Positions 12,971 to 45,056 of a stretch of 64,000 nucleotides of DNA are shown here, in pieces. Every line of letters begins with the position of its first letter. Within the stretch, counting starts at the first letter, position 1. The stretch is from a virus, in IMG/VR virus record IMGVR_UViG_3300027985_000918, positions 310,001-374,000 of that record. One strand, written 5' to 3'. The notes beneath the pieces are model-generated. The model did no database searches. It was not told the DNA's origin and saw only the letters and a list, made by a program, of their open reading frames with translations. The translations under genes were made by a program, and so were the position numbers.

Positions 12971-14359
12971 TCACAGGAAGTTGCGGGGACTGAGAACCCC
13001 ACGCCCGACATGGGGGCCGAAGGCGGAGCGGATGCCGAGTCCGTACTTAGGCTGCTGAAGCCCTCGGATGTACTTGACTGTCCGAGCCTTAGCCTCGGTA
13101 GCCTTGTCGAACTGGGACTCGGCATTCTGCTTCAGAGACTCGTACTTGCTAGACTTTTCAAGAGAGAGGCTCACCCCTCCGATGCTGTAATCGAACTCAT
13201 CGGCCACCCAATTCAGGGCCACAGCAAACAGGGCATGGACGATGGCCCCCCAAAGAACAGCGGTCTTCCACCCTGCGGTGGCGTTGGTGTTCACCAAGAG
13301 GTTGATGTTGCCGACGCTGAACGTGGACGGAGGGAACATGTTCCACCAGTCCAGAGCTGCGTCCAGGTACACCTTCAACTCGGCATCCTCCCAAATCTGA
13401 CCGAACACCCGGTCGTAGTTCCCCACCCTCCCCGAATGCTCTGGGGGCCGGAAATGGTAAAACTTGTCGGGGCTATTACTGACCACCACCCGACTCCGGT
13501 GGAGCACAAAATTGTGCCATTCCTCGGCAGTCATGTCGTACATGAACTGCCTTTTAGGAAGTTCACGCCTTGTTTGGACCGTGGGGGAAATAATACCCCC
13601 CATCTCACTCACACCCAGCAGGCATCCACCCGTGGAAAGATTCTGCGCCTCTTCTTTCCGGGTTGGCGTCATAAATACCCGGTGTCCTGCGGTGAGGACG
13701 AAAGGACCGAAATCCGTAGTGCCCTCGATGATAGTCTCCCAGGGGACCTCTGCCCGCTGCACATGGACCACCCGCCTCCACTCCACCACCCCCTCCGGGG
13801 ATACGGACTGGACCCGGAGGGTGCCCTTGAGAAAAGCGGCCCTGAGTTTCTCGCATCCGCCGGTGGACCCGAATTGCAGGATCTCCCACAAATCATCCAT
13901 GCGGACGACCATATACTCCCCGTCTACGTCCAGCTCTACGGTCTCCTCGCCTCCAACACACTGGTCCCTTAGCAAAACCCGGAGCTTGTCAATCATCTCC
14001 TGCTCGGCTGCCGAGTAGTACACCGTAGTCGCTTCTTCATTGGCAGCCACGGAGAACTCCTGGGTCACCGTCTGCTGGGCACTACTGGCATACTGGCGGA
14101 AAGTCCATCTGATCCGGTAAGTCCCGCTCTGAGCCGAAGGAGGGACCATGAGAGCTGCCCAGTATTCTCCAACCTGAGGGTTCACCGGAACCCTCTCGGC
14201 ACTGCCGATCAGAACCTCCACCTCAGGAGGTCCGGGGTCCACATAATACAGGGCGTAGCTGATCTCGTAAGCGTTCACCGGGTTCTCGTTGGAGTCCGCC
14301 AGAAACAGGGCAAGGTCCTTACGAGATGTGGTGTAGCCTGGGAAGAACTGGGTTGCCAT
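12971..14359 (-). CDS. Virion structural protein interrupted by a mini-intein
   Basis: 462 residues as translated. Exteins: residues 1-133 begin with a beta-sandwich-like domain (tail-fibre/neck type) and end in a helix DKLRVLLRDQ; residues 296-462 start SPDKFYHFRPPE and continue with a WEDAELKVYLDAALDWW helix, then a conserved virion-type C-terminus. Joined, they read smoothly (RDQ|SPDKFYHF), giving a 300-residue product. The inserted 162 residues carry Hint-domain motifs (separate entry). CAGGAG precedes the ATG. Follows a small gene (14363-14578) with a 3-base gap. Probably a neck, connector or baseplate protein; I could not name it further. Confidence 0.85.
   Translation of the reverse strand: MATQFFPGYTTSRKDLALFLADSNENPVNAYEISYALYYVDPGPPEVEVLIGSAERVPVNPQVGEYWAALMVPPSAQSGTYRIRWTFRQYASSAQQTVTQEFSVAANEEATTVYYSAAEQEMIDKLRVLLRDQCVGGEETVELDVDGEYMVVRMDDLWEILQFGSTGGCEKLRAAFLKGTLRVQSVSPEGVVEWRRVVHVQRAEVPWETIIEGTTDFGPFVLTAGHRVFMTPTRKEEAQNLSTGGCLLGVSEMGGIISPTVQTRRELPKRQFMYDMTAEEWHNFVLHRSRVVVSNSPDKFYHFRPPEHSGRVGNYDRVFGQIWEDAELKVYLDAALDWWNMFPPSTFSVGNINLLVNTNATAGWKTAVLWGAIVHALFAVALNWVADEFDYSIGGVSLSLEKSSKYESLKQNAESQFDKATEAKARTVKYIRGLQQPKYGLGIRSAFGPHVGRGVLSPRNFL
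13475..13960 (-). other. Mini-intein (Hint domain), residues 134-295 of the host protein
   Basis: N-terminal nucleophile Cys134 (CVGGEETVELD), block B FVLTAGHRVF with the TxxH pattern (T223, H226), block F FMYDMTAEEWHNFVLH and block G VVVSN ending in Asn295, followed by the +1 nucleophile Ser296. No room for a homing endonuclease domain. The residue before the terminal Asn is Ser rather than the usual His, which could slow or alter splicing. Known mechanism: N-S acyl shift, transesterification, Asn cyclisation. Confidence 0.82.
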
Positions 14360-14965: not shown

Positions 14966-15901
14966 TCAGGGGATGCTGTTGCCCGCCGTGTCGTACACGA
15001 CGCAGATGGCGGCGTCCCCATCGGCCGGGAGGGTGGCCTTGGTGAAGGGGTTCACCGCTGCGGGGCGGAGGGCCGTGGGGGTCGTCCCGGTGTAAGACCG
15101 ATTCCTGTTCAGAACCGGAACACCCGTGATGAACCCCGCCAAAACCCCACCTGCGGCCGAGAGGCGCAATGCCTCGGTAACCACGAGCTGGGGCATAGGG
15201 CGGTACCCAGCGTCGTCCGAAGTCAGGAAGCCTCCGGAGGCATACACCTGGCTAGCGTAGGTGGAGTTTGCCACCCGACTGGCCCGGGTGGCGGCCGACA
15301 TGAAGGCGCCCGCCTGGTCGGCCAGGATGGTGTTCGTCCGAAGACGGTACACCTCTCCCGACAGAATCCGCATGATGTCATCCACCGCCCCAAACGACTG
15401 GGAGAGAGCCCCCGAACCGTCCAAATCGGTGTTGGCACCTGCCCGGGTCACCAGAAGGGCGTTGATGACAGCAAGGGTCAGATCCGAACCCGCCGCCACC
15501 AGAGCCACGATGTCGTCGTACAGGTTGTTGAGCTGAGCCTGATCCAGGGTATCCCCCGCACCACCCGGGTTGACGTGAACTCGGTCACGGAGGTACGCCT
15601 TGAGGCCAAACTCAGTGGCCTGGGTGAGGGACGAGTCATTGCCAGCCGGGGCCACCACGTCAGCCGCAGCCAGAGCGGTGATGGTATCGGTGGTGGCAGA
15701 CCCACTGAGCAAGCCCTCGGCCACGTCCACGGTCTGGTCATCGGCCTCAGCGTCGAAACTGAACTTCAGGTAGCTCGACTGCCCGTTCCCTTCCAGGACG
15801 TTGTTCTTCTGGGAGTTGTTGGGGCGAAGGTCGTAGACATACAGCCCCATCCCATTCAGGTCATTCCGCAAAGGAACGATGTAGGCACGATTCACAGCCA
15901 T
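14966..15901 (-). CDS. Virion-type protein, tandem paralogue A
   Basis: 311 residues. Shares with the next two genes an N-terminal block (AYIVPLRNDL, then L.VYDLRPN.SQ, then GQ..Y) and a central block (LDGSGALSQSFGAVDDIMRILSGE). Small-residue- and Thr-rich composition with repeated short strands fits a capsid-decoration or tail-surface protein. Last gene of its operon, directly before the terminator. No known domain name. Confidence 0.78.
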   Translation of the reverse strand: MAVNRAYIVPLRNDLNGMGLYVYDLRPNNSQKNNVLEGNGQSSYLKFSFDAEADDQTVDVAEGLLSGSATTDTITALAAADVVAPAGNDSSLTQATEFGLKAYLRDRVHVNPGGAGDTLDQAQLNNLYDDIVALVAAGSDLTLAVINALLVTRAGANTDLDGSGALSQSFGAVDDIMRILSGEVYRLRTNTILADQAGAFMSAATRASRVANSTYASQVYASGGFLTSDDAGYRPMPQLVVTEALRLSAAGGVLAGFITGVPVLNRNRSYTGTTPTALRPAAVNPFTKATLPADGDAAICVVYDTAGNSIP

Positions 15902-15913
15902 CGGACTCTCCTA

Positions 15914-16813
15914 TCAGGCGATGACAGTACCGTCAGCAGCATACACGGTGACAGCCCGGCCCACACCCGTTACCGGAATAGCCGTGCCCCCGATATCAGT
16001 GGCCGTCCCACCTGCACCGTAGGTGAACGCCGGGTTCAACCAAGTGTAGGTGGCCGAGGCCAACTCGCTCAGGACCCCATCGAGAGCCGAAAGCTGGAGG
16101 GCTCCCGTGTCCACGATGGGGAGAACGAAGTTGTGGTTCACATCCTGGGTACCCGTCTGCACGGGAGCCGTCGAGGAAAGCACACTCCCGACAAAGGGAT
16201 TGCGTCCACGAACTGGAGCACCGTTAGCAGCGTAAACCGACTCGGGCCGGAGGACATTGGGGGCCGAAGTGAAAAACCCCCGCTGGGTAGCATCGAACGT
16301 ACCGGCCGCTGCTCGAACCTGAGAGTTGTCCGGCAACTTGAACCGCTCCCCTGCCAAAATGCGGAGGACTTCCCCCACCGTGCCCGTCGAGTTGCCAAGG
16401 GTCCCATCGAGATCGGAACCCGCCACACCTGCGGGTGTGTTGATGTGGATGTTGATACGGGCAAGAGTCAATGCCGTACCCGCTGCCACATCTGCCTCGA
16501 TAAGAGCGGCAATGGCGATAGCTTCTGCCGCCGTCAGGCTCTCATTGCCGCCCGTGTCCTCGACACGGTCGAGCAGATATGCTGACAGCCCGTAGGTGTC
16601 CCCGTCCACGTCCAGGGAGGCGCCGCCGCCGGCACCCGCCTGTGTGGCGACGTTACCGTTGACCCCATCCAGGAGGAAGTAGGTCTGGTAGTGGGTCTGT
16701 CCAGTGCCATCGTAGATGGCGCTCTTCTGCGATGTGTTGGGCTGGAGATCCAGGACCTGGAGAAGGCTGTCGTCCAGATCGTTTCGGGCCAGCACGATGT
16801 ATGCACGAGCCAT
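15914..16813 (-). CDS. Virion-type protein, tandem paralogue B
   Basis: 299 residues, with 12- and 15-base gaps to its paralogues. Same N-terminal block (ARAYIVLARNDLDDSLLQV, DLQPNTSQK, GQTHYQTYFL) and central block (SDLDGTLGNSTGTVGEVLRILAGE). C-terminus ends in a strand motif GVGRAVTVYAADGTV, matching the C-terminal RIVTVYNNDGTLA of paralogue C. Structural role inferred. Confidence 0.78.
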   Translation of the reverse strand: MARAYIVLARNDLDDSLLQVLDLQPNTSQKSAIYDGTGQTHYQTYFLLDGVNGNVATQAGAGGGASLDVDGDTYGLSAYLLDRVEDTGGNESLTAAEAIAIAALIEADVAAGTALTLARINIHINTPAGVAGSDLDGTLGNSTGTVGEVLRILAGERFKLPDNSQVRAAAGTFDATQRGFFTSAPNVLRPESVYAANGAPVRGRNPFVGSVLSSTAPVQTGTQDVNHNFVLPIVDTGALQLSALDGVLSELASATYTWLNPAFTYGAGGTATDIGGTAIPVTGVGRAVTVYAADGTVIA

Positions 16814-16828
16814 GTTGCAGTCTCCTTC

Positions 16829-18802
16829 TCAGGCCAGGGTGCCGTCGTTGTTGTAGACGGTTACGATTCGAGTGGGGGTGACTTCCGCTGTGACCGGACC
16901 CGGCTGATACCAGGTAGCCTGGAACGGCAAGAGGTCGGAATCCGGGAACAGGGTGACCGAGCCATCCTGAAGAGCAGACAGGTGTCCGTCCAGAAGGCTC
17001 TGCTGGAAACTGGAGCCGTCTACGGTGGCCCGGATGGGCTTGTTCTCCACGTTCTCAGTGTCACCCCCACGGGTGATACCCAGACCGGGATGTCGCTTCC
17101 AGGGGATGCTTGCCGTGATGACTCCACCGATCATCACGGAGTCGAACACCGTGTTGGCAGAAGTGAAAGCTCCCGCAGCCGTGGTATCCCAATCGAACCC
17201 GGACGGGTTCTTGGACGTGCCGGCTGGCACCACGTACCCACGCCCCGCCAGGATCTCCAGAATGTCCAGGACACTGGACGTGCCTGCTCCGGCGACCGAG
17301 ATACCAGACACACCGACAATGGCATTCATTGCGGCATTCATGTTGGCTGCCGCCAAAGCAGCACCAGCATCCACACGAGCGATGAGGGCTGCCGCCGCTG
17401 CGGACAGAAGAGCCGTCGTCCAAGTCTCCATCGTCCGAGCCAGGTGGTCATCGGACAGAATCTCCCGGGCAGCGTCCGTAGAGGTCAGCGTCATGGAACC
17501 CGGGGATCCCGTGGTGTCCGCAGTGATGGTAACAGTGTCCGTACCACCATTGGCTGCAGTCACCGTCGAGCCAACCGCTGCCAACAGAACATCCGAGGCG
17601 GCATTGTTCAGCGTGGTCGCCAGAGAGCCGGCAGCCAGGACATTGGTCCCCATCTGGATCAGGGATCCCCACTCCTGAGAGGCAGCAACCGGAGCGGCCA
17701 ACGTCAAAGTGGCGGCGCTCAGGACCAGCTCGGCAGCTTCCGTAGTGGCCATATCGAGCTGGCCCGAGAACCCCGGCAATGTCGCCGTCAGAGTCACCGT
17801 GTCCGTGGCAGCCACAGCAGTCATGCTGCCATCCAAGGCACCCGGGGCAGGGCCGGCATAGGCAGCACCGATCAGAGCCTGAGTGGCAACATCGTTCACC
17901 GTAGCGGCGATGGACGCAGCAACCTGAACCGAGGGATCCGTCTGGCCCTCGTAATGAGCAGCCGAACCGAACTCCTGAGCGGCAGGGTTCGGATCGGTGT
18001 GGGTCATTGCTGCGCCGGAAAGAACAACACGGAGGCCGCCGGTGCTCTCTGCCAAGGTGGCGTCGCCCCAAGCACCCAACACACTGGGGGTCAGGGTGAC
18101 AGTATCCGTACCACCGCTTGCCCCAGTCAGGGTACCACCAGTGGCGGCGGGGACCAGTGCGTCCAGGGCTGCCGTCAACAGAGCCTGCGTGGCGGCGTCG
18201 TTGATGGCCTGCGCCAAGAAACCGGCAGATGCAATGTCACTACCCGCTGTAGCCGAATCCTGGAACACCTGGTTGGGGAAATCGTTTGCGCCGTTGGTCG
18301 CCGTGAACAACACCCCAGCGATAGTGATGGTATCTCCGTTCTGGATACCAGCAACCTGGATGGTCCCTGTGGCCGCACCCTCGACGCAGTCAAAAGCGAC
18401 GAGACCCAGGGTGAGCCGGCCCACCGCAGCAGTCGGATCATTGACGGTGACCGTGCCCTCTGCCGTGTTCTCCACAGCAGTGAAAGCCACCCCCCCAAGA
18501 GTGACCAGGTCACCAACAAGAGGTCCGACCATCTGGACGGTCCCCACGGCGGCTTCCGAACCCCCTGGGTCCACCCGATCCGCCAGGTAAGCCGACAGGC
18601 CTCGCAGGGAAGCATTCGGGTCGTTCTGGCGCAGAAGGGCTCCGCTGGCGGTCACGATCACAGGATCGTTTTGCACCCGGTTGACGTAGCGGGTCTGTCC
18701 CGGCGGGTCCAGGTTGCTGCGTAGACTGGTGTTGGGCACCAGATCTAGAACCTGAAGGGTGCCGTCGGGGATGTCTGTCCTTGCAAGGCAAATGTACGGC
18801 AT
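16829..18802 (-). CDS. Virion-type protein, tandem paralogue C, with inserted Ig-like repeats
   Basis: 657 residues. N-terminal (YICLARTDIPDGTLQVLDL, PNTSLRSN) and C-terminal (VLDILEILAGRGYVVPAG, TVYNNDGT) blocks match paralogues A and B. Between them about 350 residues are inserted, made of repeated beta modules: GDTITIAGVLFTA ... DTVTLTPSVLGAWGDATLAE ... VVLSGA, repeated about three times with variation. The same module occurs once in the gene at 18904-20094. Such modules are common on phage surfaces. First gene of this operon, GGAGAG upstream. Confidence 0.8.
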   Translation of the reverse strand: MPYICLARTDIPDGTLQVLDLVPNTSLRSNLDPPGQTRYVNRVQNDPVIVTASGALLRQNDPNASLRGLSAYLADRVDPGGSEAAVGTVQMVGPLVGDLVTLGGVAFTAVENTAEGTVTVNDPTAAVGRLTLGLVAFDCVEGAATGTIQVAGIQNGDTITIAGVLFTATNGANDFPNQVFQDSATAGSDIASAGFLAQAINDAATQALLTAALDALVPAATGGTLTGASGGTDTVTLTPSVLGAWGDATLAESTGGLRVVLSGAAMTHTDPNPAAQEFGSAAHYEGQTDPSVQVAASIAATVNDVATQALIGAAYAGPAPGALDGSMTAVAATDTVTLTATLPGFSGQLDMATTEAAELVLSAATLTLAAPVAASQEWGSLIQMGTNVLAAGSLATTLNNAASDVLLAAVGSTVTAANGGTDTVTITADTTGSPGSMTLTSTDAAREILSDDHLARTMETWTTALLSAAAAALIARVDAGAALAAANMNAAMNAIVGVSGISVAGAGTSSVLDILEILAGRGYVVPAGTSKNPSGFDWDTTAAGAFTSANTVFDSVMIGGVITASIPWKRHPGLGITRGGDTENVENKPIRATVDGSSFQQSLLDGHLSALQDGSVTLFPDSDLLPFQATWYQPGPVTAEVTPTRIVTVYNNDGTLA

Positions 18803-29048: not shown

Positions 29049-29921
29049 TCAGCGGGTGACGGTCAGGCGGGCCAGGCCACGGGGGTTGTAGGCCCCGATG
29101 CCGAGGTTCTCAAACACAGAGAACCCGATGGTGCGGGCCTTGGGGTCGTCCGCCGAGAGGACGGTCAGCTCGGTACGGACCGGAATGCGACCGAAGTGCT
29201 CGGCTTCGCAGCACAGGTACACGGTCCCGACCGGAACGAGGCGGCTGACGACGATCTGGGCGCCGTAGATGACACCCATGAGACCCGTCTTCAGCAGGAC
29301 CGCCTGGGTTTCGATGTCCAGAATGTCCCGACCGAACTTACGGATGTCGGCATAGTCACGGGCATTCATGTACACCCGGGCCACACGGAGGTCCCAGCGT
29401 TCGATCAGGGCAAAGGCATCGGCCAGCACCGCACCGGAGATCGGAGCGATGACGGGGATGTCCGGGTTAAGCTGACCCGGCAGGCTGTCGAACCCGGCGG
29501 TGGCGATGGAGTCCATGATGGCGAAGACACGCTCGTCCTCGGCAGCCTGGACCTGCGCCCGAGCCAGATCCTGAGCACGCTCGATGAGATCGAAACGGCG
29601 CTCCTTGATCTGGGTGAGCGGGATCTCCGGGTTCGAGGCGATCTCGAACAGGGGGAAGATCACACGCCTGGGCTTCGTGATCGCCAGGATGTTCTGACCC
29701 TCTTCCCCTAGGACAAAGGCGGTGACATCCGGGTCCTTGTCGTAGATGGGGAGGGCCCCATCCGGAAGCTGTTCCACAAGGAACGTCTTGCGCCCGACGG
29801 CAGCGTAGTCACGCCGGGTGCGGAGGGGCGACGTCATGCTGGCGGCCAACTTCGCCCGTCCCATCGGGGTCTGGATCAGCTCGCCAATCAGACGCTGCTT
29901 AACTGCGTTGGTGATGGCCAT
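29049..29921 (-). CDS. Probable major capsid protein (HK97-type)
   Basis: 290 residues. Layout fits HK97-like major head proteins: N-terminal helix region, E-loop-like beta segment about residues 45-75 (FLVEQLPDGALPIYDKDPD), long helix 105-135 (ERRFDLIERAQDLARAQVQAAEDERV), then a beta-rich domain with VYMNARDYADIRKF and GAQIVVSRLVPVGTVYL, the peptide seen in many T4-like and giant-phage capsids. Strong terminator directly after, small decoration-type gene before, scaffold-like and protease genes upstream in the same direction. GGAGAG before the ATG. Confidence 0.85.
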   Translation of the reverse strand: MAITNAVKQRLIGELIQTPMGRAKLAASMTSPLRTRRDYAAVGRKTFLVEQLPDGALPIYDKDPDVTAFVLGEEGQNILAITKPRRVIFPLFEIASNPEIPLTQIKERRFDLIERAQDLARAQVQAAEDERVFAIMDSIATAGFDSLPGQLNPDIPVIAPISGAVLADAFALIERWDLRVARVYMNARDYADIRKFGRDILDIETQAVLLKTGLMGVIYGAQIVVSRLVPVGTVYLCCEAEHFGRIPVRTELTVLSADDPKARTIGFSVFENLGIGAYNPRGLARLTVTR

Positions 29922-32393: not shown

Positions 32394-33944
32394 TCAGTGC
32401 TGTCCCCGGAGGGCCTGGCCCCTCCGAGACATGATGTTGCCGAGCCGCAGGAACACCCTGGCCTCAGCGGTACTGGGCTTGCGCCCAAGGGCGGAGGCAC
32501 AAGCCCCCAGGTAATCACGACCCGTACTGTACCCACTGGGGGCTCCCGCCCTCAGAACGGCCCGGTACAAGTTCCTATCGATCTCGATGCCAGCAGCCTT
32601 GTCCAGCGTTGCCACCCCCTCAATGAGAGCGATGTCCGAGCTGGCCGTCCTGGCCAATACCCGGATAGCAGCTTCGTGCTGGACGGTATCGTTGGGTGCC
32701 GTGGAGTCGTTGACCGCACGGGATGTGTCTTCCTCCCGCATCTGGTCCTTGATCTTCCGCTTCACCCGATCCTGCATGTACTGGGTGAGCTCTTCCTCGG
32801 TCTCCTGGAGGGGAGACCCAGACTGAGCCGGGGCAACAGCGCCACCCTCACCTTCGTCCTCACCCACCTCGTCGCCCTCATCCTCCCATCCGGCAATGAA
32901 ACTGTCTCTCCCCACCGCAAGAACATCCGAGTCCGTCAGAGGACCAGATGTGACCCTTCCCACCACACGAGCGTCCTGGTGGAAACGATCCTCCAAGATG
33001 CTAATGTCCGTGGCGGAACGCCCCATTGTGGCAGCACGCTGCATCTGGTTGGCATCCCACTCCGGGGGCGGGGAGTTGAGAACCTTGGCAGCCCTGTCGA
33101 GCATAACCTGGGTAGGTTCCAACACGTTCCGCAGGACTGCTCCCGTGAACGCTGGAGTTTCCACCCAACTTGCCTCGATGAACCGCACACCGCCAGTGGG
33201 ATCGATGCTATCGTGCCCACACAACTCCGCCACACGGTGCTGGCGGCCCAACTCGTCATAGAACACGGTGCCCTTGGCATACTTGATATGGGCACACATC
33301 TCAGTTTCGTCGGCAGCCCAGTGTCCACACTTGGTACAAATCGTGCCATCCACCGTACAGCCCATGGACATAGTGCCCATCTTTCCGGACTCAATGGCCT
33401 TAACCAGCTCAGTGTGCTTGCGGTCCGTGGCAACGAGGATGTCAATGTAAATGCTATCCCCGATATCACGGGCCACGGCGTCGATGATCCGACCCCGGGA
33501 CTGTGATTCGATCTGAACGTGCTCAACGAAGTTGTGCCCGCCCACAAACGTCTCGAACGCCTTGAGCAAAACCGGGCGGCTCCAGGCATCGAGGTTGTTG
33601 TTGATGAACTTGTCGCAGACCGGCTTTACCCGGTAATCCCCATACCTGCGGTTCACTCGGAACCCATCCTCCATCTGGTGGCCGAGCTTAACCCCCTGGG
33701 GGGACTCGACATCGACCGACGCCACAATGGTGGCATGGGTCAGGAGGAAATTCTTGGGGTTGAACGGCTTACCCAAGAGTTGAGTGGCCCGTTCCACCAG
33801 GTTGCTGGCCATGGCGACCTTGGTGGGCCTGAAATCCTTGGCGATCTTCCCGCTCTGCCTTGCAGCAGCTCGGACATTGCCCCACTGCTTCCGCCCAATT
33901 GACGGATTGGCGATTGTGGCATAGGCGTACTTCATCATCGGCAT
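32394..33944 (-). CDS. Prohead protease with zinc-finger insertion and C-terminal extension
   Basis: 516 residues. The region HNFVEHVQ ... GRIIDAVARD ... YIDILVATDR ... GKMGTMSMGC (Ser193) follows the herpes/T4-type assemblin protease pattern (His and Ser of the active site). Right after the Ser, CTKCGHW ... CAHI (about 203-219) forms a zinc-like knuckle seen in some large-phage relatives, then CGHDSIDPTGGVRFIEASWVETPAF. The last 200 residues are acidic then helical, possibly a fused scaffold part. Upstream of the scaffold-like and capsid genes. Matures the head by cleaving scaffold and capsid proteins. Confidence 0.82.
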   Translation of the reverse strand: MPMMKYAYATIANPSIGRKQWGNVRAAARQSGKIAKDFRPTKVAMASNLVERATQLLGKPFNPKNFLLTHATIVASVDVESPQGVKLGHQMEDGFRVNRRYGDYRVKPVCDKFINNNLDAWSRPVLLKAFETFVGGHNFVEHVQIESQSRGRIIDAVARDIGDSIYIDILVATDRKHTELVKAIESGKMGTMSMGCTVDGTICTKCGHWAADETEMCAHIKYAKGTVFYDELGRQHRVAELCGHDSIDPTGGVRFIEASWVETPAFTGAVLRNVLEPTQVMLDRAAKVLNSPPPEWDANQMQRAATMGRSATDISILEDRFHQDARVVGRVTSGPLTDSDVLAVGRDSFIAGWEDEGDEVGEDEGEGGAVAPAQSGSPLQETEEELTQYMQDRVKRKIKDQMREEDTSRAVNDSTAPNDTVQHEAAIRVLARTASSDIALIEGVATLDKAAGIEIDRNLYRAVLRAGAPSGYSTGRDYLGACASALGRKPSTAEARVFLRLGNIMSRRGQALRGQH

Positions 33945-35362: not shown

Positions 35363-38300
35363 TCAACTGGGTAGTTCCTTGTCCTCTGTTACGGCCCTCA
35401 TATACGCCCGGAACGCATCCGGTCTCATCTCCCGGATGCGCTTCCTCTCCTTGGGGTCGGTGACGTTTTTGAGCCATTCCTGCTTCTTCTGTTCCGGGGT
35501 CTTCTCAGGATTCTGCTTGTCTTCCCGGACCTTCCGACCGTCATCCTTCGGCTCGACCTTCTGATCGAGAACCGAGAGGTCTCCAGTCTCACTCACATGG
35601 CGGACCCGAGCTACGTTCGGATTCATCTTGTCGGGCACCGTTCCCGACAGCTTCTCTGCGGTAGACATCGTCAAACGCAGATCCTGAACCTGGACTCCCT
35701 CCCCTGCCTTTAGGCAGCTCTCCAGATCCTCCTGGGTCACAGCCTTGGCGATGCAGTGTGCCAGCTCATCGGCGGCCCCCTTGAGGGCCTTGTCGTCTGT
35801 CTTGGCCTGGCGTACCCTTTCGGCCAGACTCTCAGGGTCTGTGGTAGGCTTAGAAGTGGGCTTGGTTTTACCCTTCCCCTTCTCATCGGTCTCCTTCCCC
35901 TTGTGGAAAGCGTTCAGGAACCCTTGGGTTACAGTCATGTCGTTTAGGGCCAGCATCTTGAGCACATCTCGGGCGAACGCTCTCCCCTCTGCCGTGATGT
36001 GGTTGTCCTCATCATCATCCGTAAGAACCCTACCGATGGCCTCATAGGGGCTATTATCCCCTGCCACAGTTTCCACCAATTCATCGTCCGACATGATGTC
36101 CAGAGCATCCCTGACCTTGACCCTCCCCTCAGGGCTGTACAAATCAGAAGCCCCCTTCAACAGTACGTCTTCGTCCCCAAGGACAGCCAGAGACTGAGCC
36201 ATCCTCTGGAAGCTCTTAGACATCTCCTCCGTGCCGGAGAGCTGGCGACCTTGTACAGCAGCGGCCAACATCATCCCCGACTTGATAGCATCCAGCTCGA
36301 TGTACTCGTCTGATTCGGGGTCGGCCTTATCCAATTCCTGCTTGAGCTGGTCGGCAGCAGCATCCAGAAGCCCCGGCCCCGCCTTACGGAACTGGTGGTA
36401 AGCCTCAAGAGACCGCCCATGCAGCTCCTCCGCCGTTTTGTTGTTGTTGTTGACCGCCCGGCCACCAACAAGACGAGGGTTAGCCACCACCTTCGTGGCG
36501 AACACATACTCAGCCAGGCGCTTCGCTCGCACCTGGGGGGCAGCCTCCGCCAACCCCTTGGTCCCCCTCTTGAGAGCAGACTGAGCCCTCTTCAAGACAT
36601 CCACAGTCAACCCCCCATCCTCCGCACGAGCGCTCAGAAGCTGTCCCATGTGAGAAGCATAAGCCTCTGCCAGCTCCTGCTTAGCGGAGGCCACATTCTT
36701 CTCGTACTCTGCCTTAAGCCTCTGGATATGATCCCGAACCCCCTGAGCACTCTCCTGATCTTCCGGAACCTCTGGGTACTCCGGCTCTTCCGGCCACAAA
36801 TCACCCAGGTCCATTCCCTGGACGGCCTTGTCGAAATCAGCAAGCTGTCTCTGCTGCTTGGCCCTCTGCTGTTCCCGTTCCTTAACCTTTCGCTCTTCCG
36901 CTTGCTGGGCAGCGACCTCTGGATCTTCTTCCTCCTCACCTTCCCCGCCCCCTTCAGCCCTCCTCTTAGCGGATTCTTCATCGGGAGCCGACGTGGGCTG
37001 CTTGGACTTGGGAGGCCAAACACCCCAGCCGTTCTCCGTCTGCCAGTAGTCTCCCTCTTTGTGTTCAGCATCCTGTGGGACCTTCCCAGCAATGCGAATA
37101 GGAGGACCTGACAAGACCATCAACATCCGGTCACCGGCATCCGTGATAGCGGCAACCTTCTTGTAGTTCAGGGAGAGATCGGGATCCTTCTCAGCCTTCC
37201 CCGTGTCGTCCACGTCCGGGTCATACTCGTCCATCCGATTGCGACGAAGGTCCTGCCGGGGAGGCTTCTTCGATGGCTTCGGACGATTCATCCGCTCTAC
37301 TTCCTCGTTCTCCTTCTCCCCCTCATCTTTGGTCGCCTGCCGGTACAGGTAAGCCGAAGCCACTCTCCCGGCTGCCTTCCTGATCCACTCTGCAGCCAGG
37401 CGGAGGGACGTACTTGCCCCCTTGCCCAGCCGGACCGGATCTTCGTCAGAGCCCTTCTTGTCAAGACGTTTCATGACCTCGCCGGAGGCGAGGTACTTGT
37501 CGGCCAAACCGGGGACCAGGTACTGGCTCTTAAGGGTCGAGGGTTCATGGCCCACCGCCTTGGCGGTCTCTTTTAGAGCCTGCTCAAATTCCTTCTTGAG
37601 CAGCTTCCCCCGCTCCTTCTTATCCTCGGGCAGCTCCCCACCCTTGGAGCGGATATCCTTGAGACGGCTCTGCATCTCGGCATTGGCGTGGTACCCCCGC
37701 ATGTCCTTAGCGGTGATGCCGAAAGGCTCCAGGTACTCGTTCACGTCTTCGGCAGAGATATCCCCCGTTAGGCTGTCATTCTCCCCCTTTCCCTCTTTGG
37801 CGGCCTTGAGAGCCGACACCAAAGCCGGATCACTGACAACCTTCTCGTGACTCACGCCGGACTTGCCGACGTACTTGACGGTGACTTTGTTGCCGGAAAA
37901 GGTCAGATGCTTGACCTTCCAACCTGTGACCCCATAGTGCCCATCCTCAGCAGACTCCTCATTGCCGACCCGCTCGTATGTCTCGTCCATGAGGCCAACA
38001 ATCAGGGCCTTTAGCCGGGTGTCCTCGTCCTTGGACTTCAAATCCTTCGACACCTGCGCCCTCAGCTTGGTGATGGATCCACGTAGCTTCTCTACCTGCT
38101 TAGCCTTCTCTCGGTTCCGGAGTTCAATCTGGCCCTCGCTGTACTCGTAGACGGTCGTGGTCCCTTTGCCATCGGCCTTGGGGACCTCCTTCTTCTTCTG
38201 ATACTTGGCGGACACCCGAAGAACGGCCTCCTTAGAAAGCCCCCCCGCTGTTGCGGCGGCCTCATCGTAGCGGAGCTTGAACAGTTTGATCTCCATGTCC

Positions 38301-40483
38301 TGCTTGCGCCCCTTGGGCACTGGCTCCACGATCACCACAGGTTCCCCAGACTTCTCGTCAGTCTTGAACTCTTTGATAACCCCCTTCTTATTCTTGTACT
38401 TGCCGTACAAGACGGGGTCACCGACATTCAGGGTGAAGGTTTTGGCGATCCGCAGAGCTGCCTCCTTCATCCACTCGTTATCCTCCGGGGGGTACAGCTC
38501 CTGGAGGTGTGGCATCTCATCCTGGAGGCCCGTGTAGACCCCCTTGAGCAAAGTCTTCTTCGCCTGGGTGTTCAGGGCCCTATGGACCCTGTTCCATGTG
38601 GTGGAATTCTCCAGGGCACGGTCCAGGAGGGACATCGAGGCTCCCGCCCAGAGGTTTCCGGCCCCCCCCTGCTCATGGACGTAATCAATCACTTCGTCCA
38701 CGATCTGCTGCATGAACGCCCGGATCTCAGTCGCTTCGTTGTGGTAGGTGTCCTCGTCAAGGTGACTGATTCCCCCTGGGGCAAGAAGGTCCCGGAGGTG
38801 GGTGATTTCATGAATCAGAACCGAGTACACCTCCTTGGCGACCCGGGCCTCATTGTCCAGAAACGCCTTGGGGGACTTGGCAGCATCGAGAGTGACCGTC
38901 ATCTGGTACTTGAACGCATGGCTCCCCTGAACCCTCTGCGTAACTGCCCCCCCTACCACATACTGCCGGGGACCGCTGAAACCCAAGGCCTTGTTTCTGG
39001 ACTCAACCTTGACATCCACAGCCACAAGGGCGCCCTTCACATCCTGGACGACGTACTTAGCGACGACAAAACCCCATGTGTCCGGCCGGAACCCCCGCTG
39101 GGAGTACAGAGAGTCAGAAGGGTCATCTCGAAACCGTAGGTGCTGGGGCAGCACCTGCATGATCTTGTCCGTCAGCCCCTTGGCCTCGACCTTGTTGATC
39201 GGAATAGGACGAGCAGCCCTCTTCTTGGTGTACGCCTGTGCCACTCGGAACACTGCCCCAGCGGTACGCTGCCAGCTTTCTGAGGTCATCCCCATCCGCT
39301 TAGCCGGCACCTGTCCTTTGCCCACCGTCCCCTGTCCCCGGGCAAGCCTCATAAGGGGCTTGCCATACAAACCGGACATGCTCAGCGCCCTCTGCATCCT
39401 GAACTTGCCCACATCGGACAGCTTCTCGGGGGCCGACATGAAGGCAACGAAAGACTCTGCAAAGTCCTCCCTCTCGTTGGTCTTGGCGTACTCAGTGGGC
39501 ACATGTAGGGCTTCGATAGCCTGGGCCACCGCAGAGTCACCCTGGGCATACTCTGCCACCTGCTCTTCGGTGAGAACAGGGTGGTGGTAGCTAGAGTACG
39601 AGTCCAGCACTCCCATCTTGTCCTGCTTCTGGCGCCATGCCCGGGAAAGAACCTGGTCGAACCTCTCAGTCCCAGGAGTCACCCCCTGGTTCTCCTCGAC
39701 GTGCTTCTGGAACCAGGACCGCAGAGCCTTATTCCGGCTGAGCCGCTTAGCGATCTGCTTCAGATGGTAGACGTTAGCATTCCCCATCCAGAAGGTCAGA
39801 TCTTCTATGAGCCCCCGAAAATCCTGCTGGGCCTCGGAGCCCATCTCCAGAAAGGGGTCGGAGCTGCTGTACTTCTCCATGCCTGCACGGAGCTTGTGAA
39901 CCTGAGGCATCCCCCAGACCTCAATCTCGTCGAAGGACCAGGAACCAGTCGGGATCGGACCCTCCCACTCAGTGTCGAGACCGTCGAGGTATTCAAGGGT
40001 GGTGTGGGGGCGGTAAACCGTCCAGCTATCCGTTACCTCGACCCCAATGTCCTGGATAGCCGACTTGAGACGGTCCCGAAGCTCTGCCATGCGGTGACTG
40101 AATCGAATGGGGAGAATAGCAACCCGCCGCTGCTGGGATTCATGGGTGAAGTAGTCCAACCCCTCCAGTTTGGCCTGTACGGGCCCCCTCAGTTCTTCGG
40201 ACACCACCCGCTGGCAGGTCTCGATGAACTCGTCCTCATGACCCTTGACGTTGCCAACGTAGAGCAGAGTGACGTGGGGCGGACTCTTGTCGTTACCCGA
40301 CTTTTTCACCGGAAACTGGCTGGAAATCCCCCGGGGTAGAGGAATGAACAGCCCTGTCCACTCCGTGCTGTCGCCGGTCTTTTTGCCGTCATCGGGACCG
40401 GCGTGCCTTTTAGCCCAATCAGCCTTGACCTGCTGCCGGACGGCCAATCTGCGAGCCTGTGCTTGAAGAATAGGGTGCTCCAC
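35363..40483 (-). CDS. Giant 1706-residue multidomain virion-type protein (2H phosphoesterase, zincin, coiled coils)
   Basis: GTG start with GGAGG 8 bases upstream. Domains: residues 40-200 a 2H phosphoesterase with PHVTLL (H70, T72) and PHTTLEY (H160, T162); 325-350 a segment YAKTNEREDFAESF like that following HExxH in phage minor-head zincins, here without HExxH; 405-425 the motif VFRVAQAYTKKRA; 550-590 a zincin site HEITH (558-562) with YHNEATEIRAF (probable third ligand E586); about 680-730 a KOW-like NVGDPVLYGKYKNKKGVIKE; then long charged helices, another RVASAYLYRQA, and Glu/Lys-rich C-terminal half. No portal- or tape-measure-type pattern. Sits between portal and head genes: likely an internal or ejected protein (inference). 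Confidence 0.72.
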   Translation of the reverse strand: MEHPILQAQARRLAVRQQVKADWAKRHAGPDDGKKTGDSTEWTGLFIPLPRGISSQFPVKKSGNDKSPPHVTLLYVGNVKGHEDEFIETCQRVVSEELRGPVQAKLEGLDYFTHESQQRRVAILPIRFSHRMAELRDRLKSAIQDIGVEVTDSWTVYRPHTTLEYLDGLDTEWEGPIPTGSWSFDEIEVWGMPQVHKLRAGMEKYSSSDPFLEMGSEAQQDFRGLIEDLTFWMGNANVYHLKQIAKRLSRNKALRSWFQKHVEENQGVTPGTERFDQVLSRAWRQKQDKMGVLDSYSSYHHPVLTEEQVAEYAQGDSAVAQAIEALHVPTEYAKTNEREDFAESFVAFMSAPEKLSDVGKFRMQRALSMSGLYGKPLMRLARGQGTVGKGQVPAKRMGMTSESWQRTAGAVFRVAQAYTKKRAARPIPINKVEAKGLTDKIMQVLPQHLRFRDDPSDSLYSQRGFRPDTWGFVVAKYVVQDVKGALVAVDVKVESRNKALGFSGPRQYVVGGAVTQRVQGSHAFKYQMTVTLDAAKSPKAFLDNEARVAKEVYSVLIHEITHLRDLLAPGGISHLDEDTYHNEATEIRAFMQQIVDEVIDYVHEQGGAGNLWAGASMSLLDRALENSTTWNRVHRALNTQAKKTLLKGVYTGLQDEMPHLQELYPPEDNEWMKEAALRIAKTFTLNVGDPVLYGKYKNKKGVIKEFKTDEKSGEPVVIVEPVPKGRKQDMEIKLFKLRYDEAAATAGGLSKEAVLRVSAKYQKKKEVPKADGKGTTTVYEYSEGQIELRNREKAKQVEKLRGSITKLRAQVSKDLKSKDEDTRLKALIVGLMDETYERVGNEESAEDGHYGVTGWKVKHLTFSGNKVTVKYVGKSGVSHEKVVSDPALVSALKAAKEGKGENDSLTGDISAEDVNEYLEPFGITAKDMRGYHANAEMQSRLKDIRSKGGELPEDKKERGKLLKKEFEQALKETAKAVGHEPSTLKSQYLVPGLADKYLASGEVMKRLDKKGSDEDPVRLGKGASTSLRLAAEWIRKAAGRVASAYLYRQATKDEGEKENEEVERMNRPKPSKKPPRQDLRRNRMDEYDPDVDDTGKAEKDPDLSLNYKKVAAITDAGDRMLMVLSGPPIRIAGKVPQDAEHKEGDYWQTENGWGVWPPKSKQPTSAPDEESAKRRAEGGGEGEEEEDPEVAAQQAEERKVKEREQQRAKQQRQLADFDKAVQGMDLGDLWPEEPEYPEVPEDQESAQGVRDHIQRLKAEYEKNVASAKQELAEAYASHMGQLLSARAEDGGLTVDVLKRAQSALKRGTKGLAEAAPQVRAKRLAEYVFATKVVANPRLVGGRAVNNNNKTAEELHGRSLEAYHQFRKAGPGLLDAAADQLKQELDKADPESDEYIELDAIKSGMMLAAAVQGRQLSGTEEMSKSFQRMAQSLAVLGDEDVLLKGASDLYSPEGRVKVRDALDIMSDDELVETVAGDNSPYEAIGRVLTDDDEDNHITAEGRAFARDVLKMLALNDMTVTQGFLNAFHKGKETDEKGKGKTKPTSKPTTDPESLAERVRQAKTDDKALKGAADELAHCIAKAVTQEDLESCLKAGEGVQVQDLRLTMSTAEKLSGTVPDKMNPNVARVRHVSETGDLSVLDQKVEPKDDGRKVREDKQNPEKTPEQKKQEWLKNVTDPKERKRIREMRPDAFRAYMRAVTEDKELPS

Positions 40484-40527: not shown

Positions 40528-42435
40528 TCACAGCGCCGGTGATGGCCTGTGCCCCTTGAAGCGGGCCTCCTTCCCGGACACTGGCTTAGTCAGGCCACTC
40601 TCCAGCTCACCCTGAAGCTCGGGATCAATGTGGGTGTCGCTCGCCAGAGCTTCCTCAGCGGCCTCTCGGATAGCTCTCTTGATGGCTTCCTGGAAAGTAT
40701 CCTTGAGGAAACGGTGAATCTCGTTCTGCTGTACTGAGCCAAACCGGGACATGCCCTCTTCCTTCGGTTTGGTATACTTCAGACCCAGGACATCGGCCAC
40801 TCGCTGGACAGCGTCGGAGGACTCCGCCAAGGCGTCCCCGACACGGCTGTAGACCGCCCGCAAGACTTCATTGAACGTAGCGTCCTGGAGTGTAAAAGTG
40901 TCCCTCTCCAGCTTCTCTCGGACGGTGTCGGCATCAAGGTTCAGCAAATCCAGAATGGTCTCGATGTCCAAACTCCCCTTCTGGTAGAGATTGAACAATG
41001 TGTCGAATGTCTCCTGGTTATCCCGCAAAGCCAAACGGGTGAACGACAGCCTCGGATGGATGACCACCTCTTCGCCGTCTTCGTCGTACTCGATGAACCC
41101 CATGCGGCGGCACATCGGCTCCAAAAGTTGCCGGTCTACGAAATCCTGAAGCAGCTCACGCAGCAACAGATAGCGGACGTTGATCACCTCCAAGTGGATG
41201 CGGTCCCCACTGTAGCTCGACTCACCGGACAGCAAAGATTCAGTGACCCCGAGACCGGCATAAAGCTGCCGGTCAGTGAGGTCGTACTCGGAGGACAGGT
41301 CCAGCAAGCGGGAGTCCGCCCCCCCGCCCCGCTCTTCCCAGTTGACCTGGAAGTTCGTGATGACACTATAGTCCGGGTCCTGAAGAGCCAGATCCACCTG
41401 GTCCCGCAGCTCTTCCGTCTGCTCGGCGTTCATGTCCTCCGCCCAGATGATGCGGTAGGGGGTCATGTGCCGGGAGGCGATGGATGTCTGGGCCTGGCGG
41501 AGTTTATCCCGGAACACCAGGACTCGGAGACACCGCTGAAGGATAGACTTCCCCCGAGCCTCGTACTGACTCTTCTTGCGGGCCAGGTAGTGGCAGAAGC
41601 TGCCCGCCTCAGGGGTGGTGTTCAAGGGGATGTTCTCACCCCGGAGGACGTAGTCCACAACCTCGGTAGGCATGGACTCGACCACCTCTCGGGCTCGGAG
41701 ATCTCCCTGAGTAGCCCTCTCGATGATGGCCTTGGTCTTGCTATCGGGAATCAGCTCAATGAGGCGCTTGTCCGTGAAGGGGAACGCCTCCATCTGAATC
41801 TGCTCGGGGGGAAGAACTCGGAGAGCCGACCAGCCCTTGTAATTCTTCTTCACCCACTGGACCATCCTCTTTCGGGCATCCGGGTAAGGCCGCTCTTCCT
41901 CTACCAGGGACCCGTCAGCAGCAATCTCACGATATGTCTCATGAGTCACCTCCCGGGGCATATCTGGACTCGTGTCCTCTGCGAACACGAATACCTCCCC
42001 GACGAGGTAATATTCGTGGACCACCTCCAAAAGACGGTGCAGCAGACCAATATAGCGAACCCACCGCTCACAGAACCTCATGGACGCCTCAGCCAGCTTC
42101 TTGTTCTTGGCCTTAGGCTTGCGGAGGCGTAGCTTGGAAAGGGGGAGTTCCCCGTGCAGATCGATGGCCTGACCCACAAAGGGGTCGTTGTCGTAAAAGA
42201 AGCGGAAATAGTTCCGCATCTCATCTACGGACTGAGGCAGCTCCAGGAAATCTGGGCTCAGCTCGGGACTGTAGAAGTTGCCCCCCGAGCCAACCATGGC
42301 CCCACCCGTAGCAGGGTAGGCCATCTTGAGGCGGGCTGTTCCGGTAACGAGCTTGCCGGGTTTGCCTACCTTGACCTTGTCCCGCTCGGGAAGGGTAGCC
42401 ACCTTGACTGTATGCTTGGGATCGTTCTTCTTCAT
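40528..42435 (-). CDS. Portal protein
   Basis: 635 residues. Matches the pattern of large-phage portal proteins: YFRFFYDNDPFVGQAIDLHGEL, then a beta-rich wing, PPEQIQMEAFP, FCHYLARKKSQYEARGKSI and the stem-like LTDRQLYAGLGVTESLLSGE followed by a long helix. Forms the dodecameric DNA channel at the capsid vertex. Lies just downstream of the terminase in the same direction, as usual. Start overlaps the TGA of the preceding gene (ATGA). Confidence 0.88.
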   Translation of the reverse strand: MKKNDPKHTVKVATLPERDKVKVGKPGKLVTGTARLKMAYPATGGAMVGSGGNFYSPELSPDFLELPQSVDEMRNYFRFFYDNDPFVGQAIDLHGELPLSKLRLRKPKAKNKKLAEASMRFCERWVRYIGLLHRLLEVVHEYYLVGEVFVFAEDTSPDMPREVTHETYREIAADGSLVEEERPYPDARKRMVQWVKKNYKGWSALRVLPPEQIQMEAFPFTDKRLIELIPDSKTKAIIERATQGDLRAREVVESMPTEVVDYVLRGENIPLNTTPEAGSFCHYLARKKSQYEARGKSILQRCLRVLVFRDKLRQAQTSIASRHMTPYRIIWAEDMNAEQTEELRDQVDLALQDPDYSVITNFQVNWEERGGGADSRLLDLSSEYDLTDRQLYAGLGVTESLLSGESSYSGDRIHLEVINVRYLLLRELLQDFVDRQLLEPMCRRMGFIEYDEDGEEVVIHPRLSFTRLALRDNQETFDTLFNLYQKGSLDIETILDLLNLDADTVREKLERDTFTLQDATFNEVLRAVYSRVGDALAESSDAVQRVADVLGLKYTKPKEEGMSRFGSVQQNEIHRFLKDTFQEAIKRAIREAAEEALASDTHIDPELQGELESGLTKPVSGKEARFKGHRPSPAL

Positions 42436-43058: not shown

Positions 43059-45056
43059 TCACCTTCCTCGGATACTTCCCCGGTTGGACCGGGAGGGTTG
43101 GCGATCCGGGCTCGATCCGCCCCCCTGCATGGCACGGATGCGAGCCTTGCGGGCCTGCTTAGCGGTCAAAGCCCTCTGGGGGAGCATCCCCGGCGGCAAG
43201 TTGTTGTTCCGGCCAGCAATGTGCTTGGGCTTGATGATGTGCTGGCTGGCACACCAGACCATGCGAACAAGTGCATCCGACATGTCGTCGTGCTTACCTT
43301 TGATGTTTGGAGCCTCCACAGTCACCAGATACTTGGTTTGGTACTCTGCCTGGAGTTCCAGCAGCTCTTCGATGTACGGGCAATGCTCAGCGGCTTCGGG
43401 GTCCCCCGTCTTTGACGGCTTGGGCCAGTCGTACAACCTCAGCCTCTTGTCCCACATGAAGTCCTTGAAGTTACGGAACATCTGGGAGCTGAGCTGCTTG
43501 GTGAAATGCTCAGACTGGAGCATCTTCAAACCCCGGTTATGGAGGGCCTGCTCAAACACGATCCCCGCCCACTGATCGAAAATCCCCTCTGCGAACATGA
43601 ACCGCTTGGAAAAGCCGGTAACCCAGTCGGCCACATCGTCGAACTCCAGCCTCTCCAAATGGGCGTACTCACCCTCCCCAGCCCGAATCTGTTCAACGAC
43701 ATCCAGCTCGATCGTACCGTCGTCCCCCAGATGCCCGATGGCAATGGCGCTGCCATCCCCCGCAAGAGCGAAGTCGAGACCAATGTAATGGGGCTGGCGA
43801 GACCGCCCCCGGAGCTTCGGGCGAAGCTCAGTGTCCACACAGGCCAGGAGGTCGTCCTCGTCCTCAATCCACCCCCGGGTGCGATCCGTGAAGTGCCCAC
43901 CGTATTCGGTGAAAAACACAACGGGGTCGGCCCGGTATGCCTGCTCCAACTCATCCCCATCCACGAAAGGGTTGACCTCCCAAGTTGGAGCCTGGATGGC
44001 GATCATGTTGGGGGCGCCACTCATAGCAAGTTGGAATTGCTTGTAGAACTCCCCCTGCCTTCCCAGAGGAGAGCTGATCCCGATCATGCGGCCTTCGACC
44101 GGACCGCCCGCAGCGGGAGAAAAAGCAGACATGGACGGTTTTACAGCGTTCCACACCTCGGTGGCCGAGGACTGGCCCGCATCCGTAAAGTGGGCCATCT
44201 CATCAAGGATAATCACAATGTTACCGGCACCCCGGAGACCTTTGGCTCGGCAGGGACGGAACGTCACACGGATGGTAGCATTGGCCTTTTCATCATCCAC
44301 ATACCGGCCATACCTCTCGATGTCCTTCGGGGTCTGGAACCTGGCATAGGACATGGTATTGTTGGCGGTATACGGGGCAAAGAAAGCACAGTCTTTGTAA
44401 TACCCTGCCACCTTGCTATAAAGGATGCCAGCCTGTTCCTTATCGGTCGCTACCGAAATTAGCTGGATGGGTTCACCTGCGGGCAGTCCATAGTATTCCT
44501 GGGGATCGCCTTTGGAAATCAGCTTATATGTCTCGTAAGCACCGATGATTGAAGCCAACTGGGTTTTGCCCGAACGACGGCCCACCGACAAGATCATGAC
44601 CCGCAGCTCCGTTCCCGGAGCCGTCCTTACACTGCATTGTCCCTTCTCAAACAGGTAATTTAGGTACTCAACCTCCGACATGAACTTCCACTTGCGGCGC
44701 TTCCAGTCAGAGACCATCACCACGTTCTCGTACAGACCCCCCCAATCATCCTGGCTCATGACGTGAGGGAACGTGTTCGCCAGACTGAGGGCCTGCCTCG
44801 GGCGACGGTTCTTGAGGGTGATCTCATCGTACTGGGGGTGACTCCGGGGAACGGGCTTGGAAAGATCCAGACCGTAGGGGTTGTCGTCCAGGGGCATCCC
44901 ATAGTGCAACTTGAGGATGATCCTCTGCACTGGGTACAGCTCCATCCCCAGACCCCATCGGGACTCAGCAAACGTGAGGATGTCTGCTACAGAGGTAGAC
45001 CCGGTGCCCTTCTGGGCGGCACCAATGTCAAGGGCTAGGCTGGCGAGATTCGGCAT
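43059..45056 (-). CDS. terL: Terminase large subunit
   Basis: 665 residues. ATPase: VGRRSGKT (Walker A, about 160) and IVIILDEMAHF (Walker B, about 280), with coupling motif ISSPLG. Nuclease (RNase H fold): GLDFALAGDG (first Asp), FDQWAG and the C-terminal KHDDMSDALVRM. Both activities are therefore intact; it packages DNA into the prohead and cuts concatemers. C-terminal tail is basic and probably disordered. GAGGAT before the ATG. No intein insert. Confidence 0.95.
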   Translation of the reverse strand: MPNLASLALDIGAAQKGTGSTSVADILTFAESRWGLGMELYPVQRIILKLHYGMPLDDNPYGLDLSKPVPRSHPQYDEITLKNRRPRQALSLANTFPHVMSQDDWGGLYENVVMVSDWKRRKWKFMSEVEYLNYLFEKGQCSVRTAPGTELRVMILSVGRRSGKTQLASIIGAYETYKLISKGDPQEYYGLPAGEPIQLISVATDKEQAGILYSKVAGYYKDCAFFAPYTANNTMSYARFQTPKDIERYGRYVDDEKANATIRVTFRPCRAKGLRGAGNIVIILDEMAHFTDAGQSSATEVWNAVKPSMSAFSPAAGGPVEGRMIGISSPLGRQGEFYKQFQLAMSGAPNMIAIQAPTWEVNPFVDGDELEQAYRADPVVFFTEYGGHFTDRTRGWIEDEDDLLACVDTELRPKLRGRSRQPHYIGLDFALAGDGSAIAIGHLGDDGTIELDVVEQIRAGEGEYAHLERLEFDDVADWVTGFSKRFMFAEGIFDQWAGIVFEQALHNRGLKMLQSEHFTKQLSSQMFRNFKDFMWDKRLRLYDWPKPSKTGDPEAAEHCPYIEELLELQAEYQTKYLVTVEAPNIKGKHDDMSDALVRMVWCASQHIIKPKHIAGRNNNLPPGMLPQRALTAKQARKARIRAMQGGGSSPDRQPSRSNRGSIRGR

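What the first reader, a model, noticed from the sequence alone, without database searches (positions are those of the whole stretch)
13475..13960. Mini-intein inside a virion structural gene, with Ser instead of His before the terminal Asn
Phage inteins are mostly reported in DNA-metabolism genes and terminases; one in a structural protein is unusual. The Hint blocks (Cys134, TAGH, YDMTAEEWHNFV, VVVSN|S) are clear, and the joined exteins read naturally. The penultimate Ser is non-canonical, so splicing may be slow, conditional or reliant on other residues, and could delay assembly of that protein.
Basis: partly seen in the sequence, partly recalled or inferred. Interest (0 to 1): 0.82.

Follow-up and report, generated by a model that had tools for sequence, protein, structure and literature searches.

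The report
Self-splicing insert in phage connector gene
A huge bacterial virus carries a small self-removing protein (an intein) inside the gene for a probable head-tail connector of its particle; in relatives the same insert is usually cut into two genes around a DNA-cutting enzyme gene, and this copy looks like one that lost the enzyme and was joined back together.

Summary
Residues 134-295 of the 462-aa protein (12971-14359, minus strand) are a class 1 mini-intein: C134, TAGH, D275, H282, N295, then S296. The predicted structure (pLDDT 96.8) matches inteins. Intein-free homologues read RDQ-N-PDKF across the site; in the nearest one the junction codon is AAC (Asn) where the window has AGC (Ser), the change that supplies the +1 nucleophile.

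The host protein is probably a head-tail connector (weak profile match; morphogenetic module).

The penultimate Ser is not decay: 18 of 24 related inteins have it, and penultimate Ser, Lys and Gly are reported in phage inteins. Slow splicing is unproven.

The same gene has two further intein sites. Only the window copy and one other are contiguous at this site. The tree and a graded series of nuclease decay favour secondary fusion of a split intein, but the test is not decisive (AU p=0.15). Splicing itself was not tested.

The parts
12971..14359 (-). Whole precursor gene, 462 aa, probable head-tail connector with intein; single copy in the 402 kb record
13961..14359 (-). N-extein, residues 1-133 (ends LLRDQ)
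   Evidence: alignment with intein-free homologues
13475..13960 (-). Mini-intein, residues 134-295 (C134 to N295), 162 aa, no endonuclease
13874..13960 (-). Part equivalent to the separate N-intein of split relatives (CVGGEETVELDVDGEYMVVRMDDLWEILQ)
   Evidence: alignments A2, A8; split table
13853..13873 (-). Junction FGSTGGC, at the place where split relatives have a stop, a nuclease gene and a new start codon; low-confidence loop between two helices in the model
13475..13852 (-). Part equivalent to the separate C-intein of split relatives
13682..13693 (-). Block B TAGH (T223, H226)
   Evidence: Thr and His invariant in alignment A6
13514..13537 (-). Block F D275 to H282 (DMTAEEWH)
   Evidence: Asp invariant in alignment A6
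13475..13480 (-). Penultimate Ser294 and terminal Asn295
   Evidence: SN in 18 of 24 loci
13472..13474 (-). +1 residue Ser296 (AGC); AAC (Asn) in the nearest intein-free homologue
12974..13474 (-). C-extein, residues 296-462; contains the empty site b (DEF|DYSIGG) and empty site c (GPH|VGRGVL) used by inteins in relatives

Best explanation
The insert is a class 1 cis-splicing mini-intein in the phage's only copy of a virion connector gene. Cys134 should start the acyl shift at the N-junction, assisted by block B Thr/His; Ser296 then takes over the N-extein; Asn295 cyclises, helped by block F Asp275/His282 since the penultimate residue is Ser; and a 300-aa connector is released with Ser in place of the conserved Asn. 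Historically it is most likely a re-fused split intein: an atypically split, nuclease-bearing intein invaded this site together with a +1 Ser, lost its nuclease gene, and its halves were joined in frame by a short loop (FGSTGGC). Shown here: homology, boundaries, conserved residues, fold, split relatives, nuclease series, and the +1 association. Inferred: splicing activity and its steps, presence in the virion, and the direction from split to contiguous (about 0.7 likely on its own).
For: Empty-site homologues; intein profiles, fold and PDB matches; all class 1 residues present. +1 is Ser or Cys in 24 of 24 intein loci and Asn in 135 of 142 empty-site motifs, and in 13-14 of 14 independent pairs with none opposed, p about 2e-4. 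Low dN/dS in relatives' inteins, 0.12-0.22. Single copy in the record. Fusion: 22 of 24 loci split, with nucleases intact, broken, reduced to 28-33 codon mini-ORFs, or absent; window intein groups with split L117 at 93/84 inside split rows, while its extein groups with intein-free L048.
Against: No protein-level data. The window sequence alone is under the Pfam cutoff. A tree with 19 split rows kept as one clade apart from the window is not rejected (AU p=0.153). No nuclease remnant was found in the window junction. dS is near saturation in the dN/dS pairs, and no close relative of the window intein was available.
Confidence: 0.9

Rival explanations
1. A contiguous mini-intein was ancestral at this site; the window and L135 keep the old form, and the split, nuclease-bearing forms arose later when nuclease genes invaded the loop.
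For: AU test does not reject 19 split rows as one clade without the window (p=0.153); no nuclease remnant in the window junction; contiguous forms also occur at sites b and c.
Against: Best tree nests the window among split rows with L117 (93/84); all split site-a rows as one clade is rejected (p=0.0006); graded nuclease decay in relatives supplies intermediates.
Confidence: 0.28
2. The penultimate Ser makes splicing slow or conditional, so the intein is a brake on connector assembly.
For: Ser goes with a Trp before the block F His (WHNF with SN; NHNL with HN), which suggests a tuned active site.
Against: No direct evidence. In a mycobacteriophage intein with penultimate Gly, putting His back slowed splicing (PMC5050341). 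Intein-free close relatives make the same connector without any brake.
Confidence: 0.12
3. The insert is a decayed, non-splicing remnant, or a Hint domain that only cleaves (as in bacterial intein-like or pretoxin HINT domains), and the connector works uncut or as fragments.
For: Some Hint relatives are cleavage-only (general knowledge); L131 matches PT-HINT weakly (L003 C-half); splicing not tested.
Against: Every nucleophile and assisting residue is kept; +1 Ser/Cys tracks intein presence; both exteins stay conserved across the site; single gene copy.
Confidence: 0.06

Closest known systems
Atypically split inteins AceL-TerL and GOS-TerL
   Same: Short N-intein (25 and 37 aa) and large C-intein, phage-type host genes (PMC11766414); the window's relatives split at 29-37 aa.
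   Different: Those are in the terminase gene and split; the window copy is contiguous and in a connector gene. Sequences of AceL/GOS-TerL were not compared here.
Fractured genes with split inteins and free-standing nucleases (Dassa et al. 2009, as cited in PMC6892783)
   Same: Gene cut in an intein with a free-standing nuclease gene between the halves; site b nucleases match DUF559, with a weak Vsr match. The Vsr-like nature of the published nuclease family is from memory; the paper was not held.
   Different: Site a nucleases are TnsA-like (PF08722), one HNH; split site is N-terminal; window copy has no nuclease and is fused.
Mycobacteriophage class 1 inteins lacking penultimate His (PMC5050341)
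   Same: Class 1, penultimate Ser/Lys/Gly in place of His.
   Different: Mostly in terminase and DNA genes, many with endonucleases; not this family.
Intein in a minor head protein of a cryoconite phage (PMC7468147)
   Same: Precedent for an intein in a phage structural gene.
   Different: Brief mention with a 0.8 kb endonuclease; no sequence compared here.
Split PolB intein with HNH gene in jumbo phage MIJ3 (PMC6892783)
   Same: Split intein plus nuclease gene in a jumbo phage, related to a contiguous mini-intein in another phage.
   Different: In DNA polymerase; N-half carries blocks A to N4, a canonical split.

Membership tests
Class 1 intein | Insertion absent from homologues, flanks contiguous without it | tested here: met
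Class 1 intein | Cys/Ser at position 1, Asn at the C-end, Cys/Ser/Thr at +1 | tested here: met
   C134, N295, S296
Class 1 intein | Block B TxxH and block F Asp/His | tested here: met
   TAGH, D275, H282
Class 1 intein | Penultimate His (usual, not obligatory) | tested here: not met
   Ser294; exceptions documented in PMC5050341, so not a bar to membership
Class 1 intein | Hint fold | tested here: met
   model pLDDT 96.8, PDB inteins E 1.7e-9
Class 1 intein | Protein splicing | not testable with these tools
   needs expression or proteomics
Atypical split intein | Two separate ORFs with a short N-intein | tested here: not met
   window is one ORF; 22 of 24 relatives are split with 29-37 aa N-inteins
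Homing (endonuclease-bearing) intein | Endonuclease domain or linked nuclease gene | tested here: not met
   no nuclease hit in or beside the window intein; present in most relatives
Head-tail connector (phrog_17327) | Profile match of the extein | tested here: inconclusive
   10 of 14 homologues match, best 5.8e-6; window precursor no match; homologue model only pLDDT 73; Tunturi_5 gp319 so annotated

The most novel reading that the evidence does not exclude
The window intein is a natural reversal: an atypically split, nuclease-bearing intein that lost its nuclease and was re-fused into a cis-splicing mini-intein. Its family is a homing system of TnsA-like nucleases (matching the phage head-closure nuclease family phrog_218) that targets a virion connector gene, which carries inteins at three sites and is often encoded in three pieces.
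Probability: 0.5. Interest if true: 0.72.

Novelty: new variant of a known kind. Interest (0 to 1): 0.6.

Why it matters
In the papers read, phage inteins sit mostly in terminases and DNA-metabolism genes. Here one virion gene carries inteins at three conserved sites, split or contiguous, with several nuclease types, across many large phages. Intact, broken, stub and fused states side by side make the question whether split inteins can become contiguous again directly testable. The family also offers new short-N split inteins and genes that seem to need two trans-splicing events.

Tried and rejected
Whole-protein Pfam, PHROG and PDB sequence searches gave nothing useful. A full-precursor MAFFT alignment misplaced the split halves and was not used for folding. 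A nuclease remnant in the window junction was sought and not found. The apparent insertion in L093 was two neighbouring homologues, not an intein. A cleavage-only Hint reading was judged unlikely because flanks are contiguous in intein-free homologues and all splicing residues are kept. More copies were sought with an N-half profile; only known contigs came back. The genome collection gave one more split copy, in a contig binned as Verrucomicrobiota, and one empty site. The raw Fisher p (2e-26) ignores kinship and repeated contigs and is not relied on. PDB fold matches of the connector model are weak (best 1.8e-3) and were not used.

Full report
What is there. The window is bases 310001-374000 of a 402,383-base virus record (contig IMGVR_UViG_3300028422_000919). 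The ORF 12971-14359 (-) encodes 462 aa. Residues 134-295 lie exactly at 13475-13960.

It is an insertion. Homologues from IMG/VR of about 297 aa align over both flanks and read LRD[QN]-N-PD[KR] across the site. The nearest homologue on the extein tree, L048, is 78% identical and has no insert. Its DNA after the junction codon matches the window over CCCGACAAGTTTTACCATTTCCG, and the junction codon is AAC (Asn) where the window has AGC (Ser). Removing residues 134-295 restores the spacing with one changed residue.

It is an intein. TIGR01443 rings above its cutoff. A profile of three site-a inteins finds solved inteins (1.9e-7), and with site-b relatives 8.9e-12. The predicted structure is confident (pLDDT 96.8, pTM 0.91), and the top 44 PDB fold hits are inteins or intein-like domains (best 1.7e-9); hedgehog domains follow. 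The single sequence is below the Pfam cutoff.

The host protein. Ten of 14 homologues match phrog_17327 head-tail connector, best 5.8e-6, and Tunturiibacter phage Tunturi_5 gp319 carries that annotation. The same strand of the window encodes TerL (43059-45056), portal (40528-42435), head protease (32394-33944) and major head protein (29049-29921). The fold model of an intein-free homologue is of low confidence (pLDDT 73). I call it a probable connector; its presence in the virion is inferred.

The penultimate serine. In 24 site-a intein loci of IMG/VR, some near-identical, the residue before the terminal Asn is Ser in 18, His in five (L132-L136) and Lys in one (L131). Ser goes with WHNF in block F, His with NHNL. 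So Ser is a conserved lineage feature. Penultimate Gly, Lys and Ser occur in mycobacteriophage class 1 inteins, and in one with Gly a change to His raised precursor levels, meaning slower splicing (PMC5050341). Slow or conditional splicing in this phage is a guess.

The +1 residue. Intein loci have Ser or Cys at +1 in 24 of 24. Empty sites read Asn in 135 of 142 motif occurrences, Ala in 3, Lys in 3, Ser in 1 (some contigs were fetched twice). On the extein tree 14 independent pairs differ in intein presence; +1 goes with it in 13-14 and against it in none, p about 2e-4. This is what splicing requires and is the best computed sign that the family splices. It also means the invading element brings, or selects, its own +1 residue, so the mature connector would carry a one-residue change. 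L174, empty but with Ser, may be a relic of loss or unrelated.

Split relatives. Twenty-two of the 24 loci are split: the first ORF ends 29-37 codons after Cys1, and the second carries about 120-134 aa of intein plus the C-extein. This resembles the atypical split of AceL-TerL and GOS-TerL (N-inteins of 25 and 37 aa, PMC11766414). Between the halves there is usually a free-standing nuclease ORF with a TnsA-like domain (PF08722, 1.2e-9 in L004; phrog_218 head closure, about 1e-6 to 1e-11). L116 has an HNH nuclease there instead. L121 has a broken nuclease, L126 lacks its first part, L118 keeps a stub, and L124 and L136 keep mini-ORFs of 28 and 33 codons that look like nuclease remnants by eye. 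The window and L135 have none and are contiguous.

More sites. Site b (DEF|DYSIGG) holds split inteins with Ser1 and DUF559-type nucleases in L021-L023, split N-halves in L115, L119, L121, L124, L129 and L136, and a contiguous mini-intein in L130. Site c (GPx|xGRGVL) holds a contiguous mini-intein in L110/L134. At least six loci have the gene cut at both site a and site b.

History. The window intein groups with split L117 (93/84) among split rows. Its extein groups with intein-free L048, far from the L117 extein, so the intein moved horizontally. All split site-a rows as one clade is rejected (AU p=0.0006), because split L136 pairs with contiguous L135; without L136 it is not rejected (p=0.15). 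So at least one change between split and contiguous has occurred at site a. Split to fused is the better reading for the window, given the decay series, but it is not proven.

Selection. Pairwise dN/dS in relatives' inteins is 0.14-0.22 (L115/L124, the latter without an intact nuclease) and 0.12 (L116/L118). dS is near saturation, so these are rough.

Context. The same phage has at least five more inteins by profile hits and my reading of the sequences: two in a ribonucleotide reductase and one each in an SNF2-like helicase, a DNA polymerase I and a DNA methyltransferase. In the literature read, inteins in terminases and non-structural genes are the norm, with one brief mention of a minor head protein (PMC7468147). 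No held paper joins inteins with TnsA-like homing nucleases; the founding paper on fractured genes was not held.

Verdict. Observation confirmed. Interpretation right on identity, unproven on slow splicing. As a lone mini-intein it is a new member of a known kind; as the contiguous end of a split, nuclease-bearing intein family in a virion gene it is a new variant.

Noticed in passing
window 35363-40483 (-): 1706-aa ORF between portal and head protease with a type IB topoisomerase core (PF01028, 3.1e-30) and a 2'-5' RNA ligase domain (PF13563, 9.3e-11), an odd content for a virion module.
   Followed up: no
L033 (G000:C1:384500-402383) and L034 (G000:C1:189000-207000): At least five further inteins in the same phage: ribonucleotide reductase (two; the second seems to end in Gln, LTYQ|C), SNF2-like helicase, DNA polymerase I and DNA methyltransferase (penultimate Gly, ITGN|S).
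   Followed up: partly
L003 5219-5980, L004 5027-6067, L104 4109-4996, L111 4240-4974, L194 4151-5014: The site-a nucleases match phrog_218 'head closure' (TnsA-like nuclease family) although they look like homing nucleases; a head-completion nuclease and a nuclease sitting in a connector gene share a domain.
   Followed up: partly
L116 4148-4984: HNH nuclease at the split where relatives have a TnsA-like one: nuclease replacement at one split site.
   Followed up: partly
window 14966-18802 (-): Three adjacent ORFs (14966-15901, 15914-16813, 16829-18802) begin alike (YI.LARxDxxxxxLQVLDLxPNTS), apparently tandem paralogues with no PHROG match.
   Followed up: no
L174 513-1403: Intein-free connector with Ser at the site-a +1 position (RDNSPDRNYHF), a possible scar of intein loss.
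   Followed up: no
L115, L119, L121, L124, L129, L136: Connector gene cut at two sites by two related split inteins (Cys1 at site a, Ser1 at site b); correct assembly would need the pairs not to cross-react.
   Followed up: no
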